Of a DNA stretch of 64,000 bases, positions 43,857 to 47,205 are shown piece by piece. This DNA comes from Kineosporia corallincola (GTDB lineage: Bacteria > Actinomycetota > Actinomycetes > Actinomycetales > Kineosporiaceae), in NCBI RefSeq assembly GCF_018499875.1, contig NZ_JAHBAY010000003.1, positions 434,001 through 498,000 of the forward strand, read 5' to 3'. Every line of letters starts with the position of its first letter. Position 1 is the first letter of the stretch. The translations under genes and the position numbers were made by a program. Under the pieces are notes generated by a model. That model had not been told where the DNA came from. It searched no databases and was given only the letters and a program-made list of their open reading frames with translations.

Positions 43857-44017
43857 TCCCTGGCATTCCCCTCACCCCCAGCTCCAACCCGAAAAGCCGT
43901 GTCCCGCAGCGTGTCTCCCCTGGACGTGGTGCGGATGCCCACCACTCACCGGGCCGCGGACGTCCCGCGGCCCGGTGAGGCGGCAGTTCTTGCGCCGTAA
44001 CGTCTTCGGCCCGCTCC

Positions 44018-44250
44018 GGCGCGGCGCCCGTGTACGGCGCCCCTCAAGGCTCTGGCACCCGTATGCGGCGCCTTCTCACGGTCCGGCACCCGCATGCGGC
44101 ATCCCCCCAAGGCCCTGGCACCCGTATTCGGCACGCCCTCTAGGCCCCCCGGCACCCGTCAACGACGCCCCTCAAGGCCCGGCAGCCGCATACACGGCAC
44201 CTCTTCAAGTCCCCAGGCCGCTCGCGACGCCCCCTCATGCCTCCGTGCCC
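44018..44250. repeat. degenerate ~30-35-base tandem repeats
   Basis: At least six imperfect units follow the plan GGCACCCGTATGCGGCGCCC then CTCAAGGCCC, starting near 44024, 44054, 44085, 44117, 44151 and 44181. The unit length drifts from 30 to 35 bases, so it does not encode a regular protein repeat. A second family, GTGCCCCCGCCGGTC, follows at about 44247-44310 and enters the 3' end of the M4 gene. Fills the 424-base gap between the M15-like and M4 genes; no gene is seen in it. Confidence 0.75.
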
Positions 44251-44280
44251 GCCGGTCGTGCCCCGCCTAATGTGCCCCGC

Positions 44281-45423
44281 CTACTGTGCCCCCGCCGGTC
44301 GTGCCCCCGCCTGCTGCGTCTCGGTCAGGTCGAGCGCGTCTTCCGCGTCGGGGTCCGGGAGCTCGACCGTGGTCTCCACCCCCACCTCGTTCCAGGCGGC
44401 GAGCACCACCGCGCGGGCCTGCGCGCCGAACAGTTCCTCGGCCTGGGCCACGGTGATCGCGGCGAACTCGGCGAACGTGGCCGTGGTGGTGAGGTCAGGG
44501 CTGGACAACGCCCCGAACCAGATGCGCCCCGCCTGCTCCCAGGCGAATCCCCCGAAACCGGTTGCGGCCAGGTAGAAGGCGCGGTTCGGAATGCCCGAGT
44601 TGATGTGCACGCCGCCGTTGTCGTCGGTGGTGTCGACATAGCCGGCCATCGAGTCGGGCTGCGGGTCCTTGCCGAGACTCGGGTCGTCGTAGGCGGTGCC
44701 CGGCGCCTTCATCGAGCGCAGCGCCACCCCCTGCACCGAGGAGGTCAGCAGGCCGGCGCCGATCAGCCAGTCGGCCTGCTCCGCGGTCTGCTGCGGCTGC
44801 GCGGCGTACTGCTTGACCAGGCTGCCGAAGACGTCGGACATCGACTCGTTGAGGGCCCCGGACTGCCCCTCGTAGACCAGGTCGCGCACGGCACCGGTGA
44901 CGCCGTGGGCCAGCTCGTGCCCGATCACGTCGAGCGAGACGGTGAACCGGTTGAACAGCGTGCCGTCGCCGTCGCCGAACACCATCTGCTCGCCGTTCCA
45001 GAAGGCGTTGTCGTAGTCGCGGCCGTAGTGCACGGTGGCGTCGAGCGGCAGGCCGCTCGCGTCGATCGAGTTGCGCCCGAACACCTCCCACCAGAACGCG
45101 AACGTGGCGCCCAGGCCGTCGTAGGCCTCGGTGACGGCGACGTCGGCCACCGCCGCGCCGCCCTCGCGCAGAACCTCGGTGCCGGGCAGGTTCTGCCGGT
45201 GCTGCGCGTCGTAGACGGTGCGGTCGGGTGCGGCCTGCGGCGTGTCGCCGGCGACGGCGGTGCCGGGCCGGGCGGCCGGACGCACGGCCCGGGCGGCCCG
45301 CAGGGTCCGGTCGACGGTGAGATCGGCGCGGGCTCCCTCGCGCAGGTGCTCGGGGCCGTGCTCGGCCAGGTGCTCGAGCATGTAGGGCGGAAGGACGTGG
45401 TGCAGGCCGAGATTCGGATTCAT
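44281..45423 (-). CDS. protealysin-like M4 metalloprotease
   Basis: A 380-residue thermolysin-family protease without signal peptide. Catalytic features: HELAH (169-173), Zn ligand Glu193 in ALNESMSD, and His273 in VHINSGIPNRAF. A ~60-residue N-terminus replaces the long thermolysin propeptide and carries HHVLPPYMLEHLAEHG, the short protealysin-type precursor with its PPY/PPL motif. Protealysins are intracellular or non-classically released. ATG 45423 with AGAGGGGG. The upstream gene (17 bases away) looks like the protealysin inhibitor emfourin. The C-terminus runs into a tandem-repeat region (QQAGARPAGAQ tail). Confidence 0.9.
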   Translation of the reverse strand: MNPNLGLHHVLPPYMLEHLAEHGPEHLREGARADLTVDRTLRAARAVRPAARPGTAVAGDTPQAAPDRTVYDAQHRQNLPGTEVLREGGAAVADVAVTEAYDGLGATFAFWWEVFGRNSIDASGLPLDATVHYGRDYDNAFWNGEQMVFGDGDGTLFNRFTVSLDVIGHELAHGVTGAVRDLVYEGQSGALNESMSDVFGSLVKQYAAQPQQTAEQADWLIGAGLLTSSVQGVALRSMKAPGTAYDDPSLGKDPQPDSMAGYVDTTDDNGGVHINSGIPNRAFYLAATGFGGFAWEQAGRIWFGALSSPDLTTTATFAEFAAITVAQAEELFGAQARAVVLAAWNEVGVETTVELPDPDAEDALDLTETQQAGARPAGAQ

Positions 45424-45440
45424 CGGTGTTCCCCCTCTGG

Positions 45441-45737
45441 TCAGGAGTAGGACGACAGCATCTCGATCAGGGTGCCCACCGGGTCTTCGAGCGGCTCGGT
45501 GACGGTCACCGTGTGCGTGGTCGTTCCGTCGGCCACGGTGAGGTCGTAGACGTAGCGATCACCCGCCCCGGGTGCCGGGGTGGGCTGCGCCGCGAGCTGG
45601 TCGACCCGGACCGCCCGGACCGCCGACTCGAGTTCCTCGGCCTCACCTTTCGGGAGCGTAGCGGTGTCCACCGACAGTTTGCGGCTCAGGCCGGGGACGG
45701 CGGCGAACCCGCCGCTGCGACGCAGGGTGATGAGCAC
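45441..45737 (-). CDS. emfourin-like protease inhibitor
   Basis: A 98-residue protein without signal peptide. VLITLRRSGGFAAVPGLSRK, SVDTATLPKGEAEELESAV and YVYDLTVADGTTTHTVTVTE follow the pattern of emfourin, the small inhibitor of protealysin-like M4 proteases whose gene is found beside theirs. It is 17 bases upstream of the M4 gene on the same strand, so inhibitor is made first. GTG 45737 was chosen to start just before the conserved core; longer readings lack a ribosome site. Assignment is from pattern plus location, so a search should confirm it. Confidence 0.72.
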   Translation of the reverse strand: MLITLRRSGGFAAVPGLSRKLSVDTATLPKGEAEELESAVRAVRVDQLAAQPTPAPGAGDRYVYDLTVADGTTTHTVTVTEPLEDPVGTLIEMLSSYS

Positions 45738-45864
45738 GGGACCACCGCCGGTTCCATCGGATTCCGTTGACGCGAACACCTTCGGCTGGACGTGCCGATG
45801 ATCTGAAGGATACGGCCACGCAACGGGAAAAGCTTGTTCGGCGGCGAGATTCAGAACGGCCGGA

Positions 45865-47205
45865 TCACTCGTTCTGTGCGATGCCGTCCGGCGCCGTCCG
45901 GGAGTCACCGGCCGGGCGGGCCTCCGGAACCGCCCGGCCCCGGCGGCCGGTCGCACCCTCGTCGGGGCCTGGCCCGGCGGCACCGCCCGGCTCCGTGGCC
46001 TCCTCACCGGGCGGCAGGGCGGCCGGCGGGCGAGGACCTCCGGTCACCTCACCCGGCACCGTCTGCGCCCCCGGCGCCTGCCGGGCCTCTCGAACGGCCG
46101 GCGACTCCTGCGCCTCCTGCGCCCGCAACGCCGCCTTGGCCTGGGCCCGGGCCAGCCGCCGCTTGCGCCGGGCCGTGGCGTTCTGGCCGCCGTGCTCGAA
46201 ACCGACGTCGACCCACTCGAAGTCCTTGGTGCGCTGGGCCCGGGCGTAGCTGCGGTAGGCGCGCTGGTCGGCCTCGGTCAGGTCGACGTCGTCGGTGAAC
46301 GGCGTGAGCAGCGTGCGCGGGTACAGGTGCCGCACCCGCACCACGTTGGCCTCGGCGCAGATCAGCAGGGCGACCACGGCCAGGTAGATCCAGGCGATCA
46401 GGCCGAGCACGATCGCGAACACCCCGTTGGTGGCGTCGGCGTGCCGCACCACACTGCCCACGTAGACGGTGCCGAACTGCTGGAGCCCCTGCCAGACCAG
46501 CGCCGCACCGATCGCCCCGGGCAGCACGTCCATGCGGCTGAGCCTGCGGGTGGTGCCCCAGCGGAACAGGAACATGAAGAACACCGTGATCAGCGTGATC
46601 CCGGCCAGTCCCGCGACCAGTCGCAGGATCTCGTTGAAGTTGATCAGGTCGGCGAAACCGTTGACGTTGGTGCCGATACCGCCCAGGCTGCCGGTGATCA
46701 CGAAGGTCAGGCCGCCCACCGCGAGCAGGAAGAGGCTGCGCAGCCGGGCCGCGATCGGGTTGGGCCGGCGGTTGCGCGGCACGGCCCACATGGTGTTCAT
46801 CGCGTTCTGCGTGGCGTTGGCGACGCCGAGTGCACCGTAGAGCGAGCCGACCAGACCGATGGCGACGGCGGTGGTGCTGCCGCGCAGCCCCTGCGGGTCA
46901 CCCAGCTGGTCGCCGATCACCGGGAACTGACGCAGCGCCGAGTCCAGGATCTCCTGCTGGAGCTCGGGGTTGTCTTGCAGGATGAAGCCGAGCACCGAGG
47001 CCAGCAACAGCAGCAGCGGGAACACCGACAGGAAGCCGTAGTAGGTGATCAGCGCCGCCAGGTAGCCGCCCTGGTCGTCGAAGAACTTGTAGATGACGGC
47101 CAACGGGAACCCGATGACGGCGTGCTTCTGCTGGAAGCGGTCCACCCGATCGTGGAGCTTCTCCGCCTGCCTGCCCGCCTGTCTGCCGACCGACCTCACC
47201 GACAC
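45865..47205 (-). CDS. YihY/BrkB family membrane protein (first copy)
   Basis: A 446-residue protein: N-terminal basic helix, then six spans of the YihY/virulence factor BrkB family (GGYLAALITYYGFLSVFPLL, VGSLYGALGVANATQNAMNT, FRWGTTRRLSRMDVLPGAI, VFAIVLGLIAWIYLAVVALL). The C-terminal ~130 residues are charged and Pro/Ala-rich, presumably cytoplasmic and disordered. Function of the family is unsettled (transport or membrane integrity). GTG 47205; start not firmly fixed. A second family member lies 3.7 kb away. Confidence 0.87.
   Translation of the reverse strand: MSVRSVGRQAGRQAEKLHDRVDRFQQKHAVIGFPLAVIYKFFDDQGGYLAALITYYGFLSVFPLLLLLASVLGFILQDNPELQQEILDSALRQFPVIGDQLGDPQGLRGSTTAVAIGLVGSLYGALGVANATQNAMNTMWAVPRNRRPNPIAARLRSLFLLAVGGLTFVITGSLGGIGTNVNGFADLINFNEILRLVAGLAGITLITVFFMFLFRWGTTRRLSRMDVLPGAIGAALVWQGLQQFGTVYVGSVVRHADATNGVFAIVLGLIAWIYLAVVALLICAEANVVRVRHLYPRTLLTPFTDDVDLTEADQRAYRSYARAQRTKDFEWVDVGFEHGGQNATARRKRRLARAQAKAALRAQEAQESPAVREARQAPGAQTVPGEVTGGPRPPAALPPGEEATEPGGAAGPGPDEGATGRRGRAVPEARPAGDSRTAPDGIAQNE

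What the first reader, a model, noticed from the sequence alone, without database searches (positions are those of the whole stretch)
44281..45737. Emfourin-like inhibitor encoded ahead of a protealysin-like protease
Both proteins lack signal peptides and lie 17 bases apart with the inhibitor first, so it should be made before the protease. In the described Serratia system the protease gene comes first. An inhibitor-first, toxin-antitoxin-like order in an actinobacterium deserves testing, also as a possible interbacterial or defence module.
Basis: partly seen in the sequence, partly recalled or inferred. Interest (0 to 1): 0.7.

Follow-up and report, generated by a model that had tools for sequence, protein, structure and literature searches.

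The report
Protease inhibitor gene before its protease
An actinobacterium carries a known type of inhibitor–protease gene pair in the less usual order, inhibitor first, and the related species examined share this order; the pair itself is of a familiar kind.

Summary
On the minus strand a 98-residue protein matches Pfam Emfourin (83.8 bits, cut-off 27) and ends 17 bases before a 380-residue protealysin-like M4 protease (closest solved structure protealysin 2vqx, E 9e-120). Each is the only hit of its Pfam family in the genome.
Inhibitor-first is not an actinobacterial trait. It is in 6 of 6 genomes of the genus, own included, within a conserved neighbourhood. The 25 other loci fetched from the order are protease-first, as are 23 of 26 further phylum loci; the other 3 show no protease. 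Of 80 named relatives, 59 are protease-first, 5 inhibitor-first, 16 show no inhibitor. One of 13 plasmids is inhibitor-first. The number of origins is unresolved (AU p 0.39).
Most likely this is an ordinary emfourin–protealysin pair restraining a leaderless, self-maturing protease, with its order fixed in one lineage. No defence or delivery link was seen at the locus. The competition idea is already in print for Serratia (PMC9505478). Inhibition is inferred, not shown.

The parts
45441..45737 (-). Emfourin-like metalloprotease inhibitor, 98 aa, GTG start (stop included)
   Evidence: PF20242 83.8 bits; profile A3 finds 6zyg alone at E 2.5e-9; Foldseek best match 6zyg, E 5.5e-4, probability 1.00
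45424..45440 (-). 17-base gap with an AGGGGGA Shine-Dalgarno-like stretch; 16-22 bases with GGGGGA in the five genus loci compared, own included
44281..45423 (-). Protealysin-like M4 metalloprotease precursor, 380 aa (stop included): propeptide-like start with LPPYML, then the catalytic part with HELAH, ALNES and GGVH
   Evidence: PF02868 and PF01447; 2vqx E 9.3e-120; alignment A1
45738..45864 (-). 127-base spacer between the BrkB/YihY gene and the inhibitor; the likely place of the pair's promoter or leader
   Evidence: coordinates; spacing differs widely between congeners; no promoter shown
45865..47205 (-). BrkB/YihY-family membrane protein, conserved upstream neighbour, not part of the pair
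   Evidence: PF03631 144 bits; found upstream of the pair in the five congener regions taken

Best explanation
This is an emfourin–protealysin-like pair with the usual gene order reversed. The protease is made without a signal peptide as a precursor and matures by removal of its propeptide. The small inhibitor made from the gene just upstream binds the mature active site one-to-one and keeps the protease silent in the cytoplasm until it is needed or released. Placing the inhibitor first on a shared transcript would bias expression towards inhibitor, but the arrangement is most simply a lineage-fixed variant of a known module. Shown: the homologies, the order, its conservation in the genus, and correlated divergence of the two proteins over the wider family. 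Inferred: co-transcription, inhibition, maturation and any consequence of the order.
For: Emfourin family match, with emfourin 6zyg the only solved chain found by the family profile and the top Foldseek match of the model. Protease 403.7 bits to protealysin over nearly the full length, with zinc-ligand and catalytic motifs aligned. Short gap with a Shine-Dalgarno-like stretch in 5 of 5 genus loci measured. 6 of 6 genomes of the genus, own included, keep the pair inhibitor-first, in a conserved neighbourhood in the five congener regions read. Distances of the two proteins correlate over 112 pairs, Mantel r 0.526, 0 of 999 permutations as high, and the 8 inhibitor-first rows used lie within the 5-95% spread of the protease-first rows, as expected of cognate partners. 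In Serratia, deleting the inhibitor gene lowered FtsZ and raised actin cleavage by extracts from 40% to 65% (PMC9505478, passages).
Against: No expression or inhibition data for this organism. Low identity to Serratia emfourin: a single-sequence search gives 6zyg only at E 0.11. The model is of medium confidence (pLDDT 79.7), and VIA-align ranks Mago-nashi chains (Z 7.4-7.7) above 6zyg (Z 5.5). The propeptide model is below its cut-off. Part of the Mantel signal may come from shared host ancestry and near-copies. Inside the genus the inhibitor distances and the protease tree disagree slightly on the window's nearest relative.
Confidence: 0.75

Rival explanations
1. Interbacterial effector and immunity pair: the protease is delivered into neighbours, where it cuts proteins such as FtsZ and RecA, and emfourin protects the producer and its kin.
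For: Proposed for Serratia in PMC9505478 (passages). Both proteins lack evident signal peptides. The genome holds 2 sheath-protein matches and 6 WXG100 matches, so contractile or ESX-type machinery may exist.
Against: None of these matches lies at the pair; the sheath matches may belong to prophages (not checked). Neighbours are housekeeping-like and syntenic. Pfam shows no delivery domain on the protease.
Confidence: 0.1
2. Toxin-antitoxin or anti-phage module: phage infection or stress removes emfourin and frees the protease to stop the cell's growth.
For: Antitoxin-first order is usual in type II toxin-antitoxin loci (recalled). In Serratia the inhibitor deletion brought an earlier fall in culture density (passages).
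Against: No PADLOC match for the pair or 4 neighbours. Synteny in the genus rather than a mobile island. The propeptide would be a second safety lock, unlike usual toxins (recalled).
Confidence: 0.05
3. About the order alone, and compatible with the best explanation: it is a neutral accident of rearrangement with no effect on inhibitor-to-protease ratio or timing.
For: Most relatives examined are protease-first. The spacing upstream varies among congeners.
Against: Order is kept in 6 of 6 genomes of the genus and the short gap in 5 of 5 measured, though descent alone could explain that. Inhibitor-first also occurs in Amnibacterium, three other MAG lineages or members (two Acidobacteriota, one unassigned), a Synechococcus MAG and a Hymenobacter plasmid.
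Confidence: 0.5

Closest known systems
Protealysin–emfourin operon (pln-m4in) of Serratia proteamaculans
   Same: Emfourin-family inhibitor with a leaderless protealysin-type M4 precursor, in one operon (there shown, here inferred)
   Different: Inhibitor gene first here; host is an actinobacterium; C-terminal extension of about 30 residues on the protease beyond the 2vqx match; inhibitor only distantly alike
Protease-first pairs annotated 'M4 family metallopeptidase' and 'protealysin inhibitor emfourin' on plasmids of Streptomyces, Rubrobacter, Rhizobium, Nostoc and Caballeronia
   Same: Same two families side by side on one strand
   Different: Order reversed
Inhibitor-first pairs: Hymenobacter volaticus plasmid, Amnibacterium sp. 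CER49, MAGs of Acidobacteriota, of Synechococcus and one unassigned
   Same: Same families and same order as here
   Different: In the five named loci, 85-121 bases from the inhibitor's stop to the start of the protease profile match; no other neighbour of the window found in them; two Acidobacteriota inhibitors score below Pfam's cut-off
SSI/sermetstatin inhibitors of Streptomyces
   Same: Small protease inhibitors with a weakly similar shape, Foldseek E 0.04 or weaker
   Different: Weak structural match only; SSI proteins are secreted (recalled)

Membership tests
Emfourin (PF20242) | Match above the curated Pfam cut-off | tested here: met
   83.8 bits against 27
Emfourin (PF20242) | Fold of Serratia emfourin 6zyg | tested here: inconclusive
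   Foldseek top match, E 5.5e-4, probability 1.00, but TM-score 0.42; VIA-align Z 5.5, below Mago chains at 7.4-7.7; by sequence the profile matches at E 2.5e-9
Emfourin (PF20242) | Tight one-to-one inhibition of a protealysin-like or thermolysin-like protease | not testable with these tools
   needs purified proteins
Protealysin-like proteases (M4) | M4 catalytic domains and zinc/catalytic motifs | tested here: met
   PF01447, PF02868; HELAH, ALNES, GGVH in line with known M4 enzymes
Protealysin-like proteases (M4) | Short protealysin-type propeptide | tested here: inconclusive
   PF16485 19.6 bits, below 28.1; but the alignment to the 2vqx precursor begins at residue 3 and includes PPYML
Protealysin-like proteases (M4) | No signal peptide | tested here: met
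   by hydropathy only
Protealysin–emfourin operon | Adjacent genes on one strand with a short gap | tested here: met
   17 bases
Protealysin–emfourin operon | Protease gene first, as in Serratia | tested here: not met
   inhibitor first; pairs of these two families occur in both orders, so this marks a variant
Toxin-antitoxin or defence system | Match to a described defence protein family or a defence neighbourhood | tested here: not met
   0 PADLOC matches in 6 proteins; housekeeping-like neighbours
Effector–immunity pair | Delivery into other cells | not testable with these tools
   no linked delivery gene among the neighbours read

The most novel reading that the evidence does not exclude
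Inhibitor-first order was selected as a fail-safe: translating the inhibitor ahead of a self-activating cytoplasmic protease guarantees inhibitor excess, so that the pair acts as a proteolytic toxin-antitoxin switch whose trigger is loss of the inhibitor. The order may have been reached more than once.
Probability: 0.1. Interest if true: 0.55.

Novelty: new variant of a known kind. Interest (0 to 1): 0.3.

Why it matters
If the order matters, comparing inhibitor-first and protease-first pairs gives a natural test of how cells keep a cytoplasmic protease harmless. If it does not, the locus is still a clean actinobacterial example of the emfourin–protealysin pair for biochemistry. What these pairs do for the cell was still put forward as a proposal in the one emfourin paper I could read passages of (PMC9505478).

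Tried and rejected
Actinobacterium-wide reversal: rejected by the survey.

Several proven independent origins of inhibitor-first: parsimony on the trees asks for 4 changes of the label and starred branches force at least 2, but an AU test does not reject all ten inhibitor-first rows as one clade (p 0.39). I therefore claim no number of origins. The grouping of the genus with Amnibacterium has SH-aLRT 95 in the quick tree and 94/18 in the careful one: not firm.

Absence of the pair from the rest of the family: searches (Pfam; profile A3) find no inhibitor in the 7 genomes of five other genera. But one search finds a protealysin-like protease with its N-terminal part, 46-47% identical, in 4 of those 7 (genera g3 and g4). 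In the two loci with enough sequence behind it (L209, L211, both g4) an open frame directly after the protease, with VEGGF near its start, looks to me like a far-diverged emfourin in protease-first order. It scores only 12.5 bits with my own profile in L209 and has no Pfam match. So absence is not claimed.

The genome searches miss members: in four genomes listed without a Pfam match or 18 (L075, L077, L079, L081) my own profile finds emfourin-like stretches of 41 to 73 bits beside the protease, all protease-first. The tallies 29 of 149 and 31 of 396 are lower bounds.

A C-terminal protease tail as a mark of the inhibitor-first form: tails occur in both groups. Shared promoter motif: only TCCGTTCC in 4 of 6 upstream stretches, not interpreted. 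Phage or viral emfourin pairs: 7 viral-contig loci and 2 of the 16 phage records with a protease match gave no emfourin match nearby; several of the viral loci end close to the protease. NCBIfam: nothing above cut-off.

Not reached: the original emfourin paper (Chukhontseva 2021, known here from the reference list of PMC9505478) is not held; whether it treats gene order is unknown to me. Only two papers of the library contain the word emfourin; among the rows listed by searches none is on gene order of this pair. PMC12844201 was seen only as a listing.

Rows dropped before counts: L007, L011, L012 and L023 hold a cut-off protease and were left out of the tree, though all four have it upstream on the same strand; L054, L056 and L057 have no protease in the locus; L168 (sixth genus genome) came after the tree was built; L058-L087 repeat genomes already held, bar the four named above. 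L029, L038, L040, L053 and L055 (long branches), near-copies and all but one of the rows without an inhibitor were left out of the careful tree. Five pairs with inhibitor matches of 60 residues or fewer were left out of the Mantel test, two of them inhibitor-first (L104, L128). Matches without a fetched locus: two; three, of which one is L031, one (G170:C1:3023604) is protease-first by the coordinates, and one (G435) is under the cut-off. My emfourin profile was built from the hits and used at 10 bits or more; the weakest protease-first call scores 21.2, the weakest inhibitor-first.9 (L110).

Full report
Observation. The upstream one (45737 to 45441, GTG start, 98 residues) matches Pfam Emfourin PF20242 at 83.8 bits, far above the cut-off of 27; the downstream one (45423 to 44281, 380 residues) matches both M4 thermolysin-family domains. 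By sequence the protease's best solved relative is protealysin 2vqx, E 9.3e-120 over residues 3-349, far ahead of the next M4 enzyme at E 3.1e-51. The inhibitor alone reaches emfourin 6zyg only at E 0.11, but a profile of 44 inhibitors headed by it finds 6zyg as the only solved chain, E 2.5e-9. The predicted model (pLDDT 79.7) has 6zyg as its best Foldseek match (E 5.5e-4, probability 1.00, TM-score 0.42); VIA-align ranks Mago-nashi chains higher (Z 7.4-7.7 against 5.5), a level that the tool's own notes call common. The family assignment therefore rests on sequence profiles, with the fold in agreement but not decisive.

Anatomy. The gap is 17 bases with AGGGGGA; in the five genus loci compared, own included, it is 16 to 22 bases and always holds GGGGGA. 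The protease keeps LPPYML near its start, in line with the 2vqx precursor, although the propeptide profile is under its cut-off (19.6 against 28.1 bits). HELAH, ALNES and GGVH line up with known M4 enzymes; their roles are recalled. Neither N-terminus looks like a signal peptide by hydropathy. The GTG start of the inhibitor has a weak ribosome-binding stretch by eye; the four congeners compared start with ATG at the same place.

Neighbourhood. Upstream lie a BrkB/YihY membrane protein, a TPR protein, an Excalibur-like protein (below its cut-off) and RsgA; downstream, converging, an M15 peptidase, then a presumed substrate-binding protein (no Pfam match) and an ABC-transporter permease. The same series surrounds the pair in the five congener regions taken, except that RsgA is not found in L196 and the permease not in L195, where the stretches end. 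The spacing between the membrane-protein gene and the inhibitor runs from 127 bases in the window to about 2 kb in L195, where another gene lies between, so the pair is probably its own transcription unit (inference). PADLOC has no match for the pair or four neighbours. The genome has two sheath-protein and six WXG100 matches elsewhere; none lies at the pair.

Order survey. In the family, 6 of 13 genomes have an emfourin match, all six of the window's genus (the same six with profile A3). All six loci are inhibitor-first. The 7 genomes of five other genera have no match, but four of them have a protealysin-like protease at 46-47% identity, and two loci show a frame just after it that may be a far-diverged emfourin, protease-first (no Pfam match). 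In the order sample 29 of 149 genomes matched; the 25 loci fetched outside the genus (L007-L031) all have the protease upstream on the same strand, four of them about 1 kb away and cut by the end of the locus. In the phylum sample 31 of 396 genomes matched; of 26 further loci (L032-L057), 23 are protease-first and 3 have no protease in the locus. These tallies are lower bounds, since four genomes listed without a match have emfourin-like stretches by my own profile, all protease-first. The five are Amnibacterium sp. CER49, a Synechococcus MAG, two Acidobacteriota MAGs (L110, L128) and an unassigned MAG (L104) that groups with them. By Pfam their inhibitors score 39 (Amnibacterium), 74.6 (Synechococcus), 22.1 (L110), 21.2 (L128) and 36 bits (L104); L110 and L128 are below the cut-off of 27, so emfourin-like rather than assured. 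Of 13 plasmid records in which one place covers 80% of the protease, 9 are protease-first, one (Hymenobacter volaticus, inhibitor 82 bits) is inhibitor-first, and 3 show no inhibitor in the stretch read.

Trees. On a tree of 133 proteases (107 protease-first, 10 inhibitor-first, 16 without), the five genus rows form a clade (99) and Amnibacterium joins them (95, SH-aLRT); L104, L110 and L128 plus one row without data (L095) form another (99); the Synechococcus row stands apart. The careful 63-row tree keeps the genus (100/100) and the trio with its companion (99/90) but not firmly the link to Amnibacterium (94/18). The AU test does not reject one clade of all ten (p 0.39). So the order is rare and clustered in this sample, and its number of origins is open. 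Distances of protease and inhibitor correlate over 112 pairs (Mantel r 0.526, 0 of 999 permutations as high); the eight inhibitor-first rows used have median residuals of -0.29 to 0.27, inside the 5-95% range of the protease-first rows, -0.46 to 0.38: no sign that the reversed pairs are mismatched.

What it most likely does. By homology, the inhibitor restrains the mature form of its neighbour. In Serratia the two genes are one operon, deletion of the inhibitor gene lowered FtsZ and raised actin cleavage by extracts, and the authors proposed interbacterial competition (PMC9505478, passages read). Reversed order would put inhibitor synthesis ahead of protease synthesis on a shared transcript; since the protease also seems to be made as an inactive precursor, this is a second safeguard at most. 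None of this has been measured for the window's proteins.

Verdict. A well-formed emfourin–protealysin pair, in a minority gene order kept throughout the genus as sampled. No tool here names the genus. The families, the pairing and the competition idea are known; the lineage-wide reversal is the new part, and I found no discussion of it among the papers listed, with the original emfourin paper out of reach.

Noticed in passing
L173 (Streptomyces phage JustBecause) 3486-4385; L174 (Streptomyces phage Kradal) 3486-4382: Protealysin-like metalloproteases near one end of large Streptomyces phage genomes (six such phages among the rows listed), without an emfourin match beside them in the two read. 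In Kradal the next gene overlaps the protease by 4 bases and does not match the emfourin profile.
   Followed up: partly
L209 and L211 (sister genus g4), just after the protease: A frame starting about VSLVVEGGFTG directly downstream of a protealysin-like protease; possibly a far-diverged emfourin that Pfam does not recognise, protease-first.
   Followed up: partly
L195 4975-6831; L003 1012-1476: In congener G535 a 618-residue protein resembling an alpha-amylase-type enzyme (by eye, not searched) lies directly ahead of the inhibitor; in G121 a short frame with the same ending (RLHVP) suggests a remnant.
   Followed up: no
L004 protease, C-terminus: The protease of congener G135 ends in a long low-complexity tail of repeated NSGANSASN-like units, 464 residues in all.
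   Followed up: no
L054, L056, L057: Emfourin-like genes with no protealysin-like protease match within the 1.5 kb held on each side.
   Followed up: no
L120, L127, L138, L147, L161; L125, L133, L165; L132, L149: Protealysin-like proteases of Streptomyces, Catenulispora-type and Frankia genomes without a recognisable emfourin in the locus; they cluster on the tree.
   Followed up: partly
G000 C14:112032-112469 (L177) and C2:113907-114326 (L178): Two sheath-protein matches in the window's genome, from contractile systems or prophages.
   Followed up: no
window 44000-44290: Imperfect GC-rich repeats (runs like GGCACCCGTA) between the converging M15 peptidase gene and the protease gene, seen by eye.
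   Followed up: no
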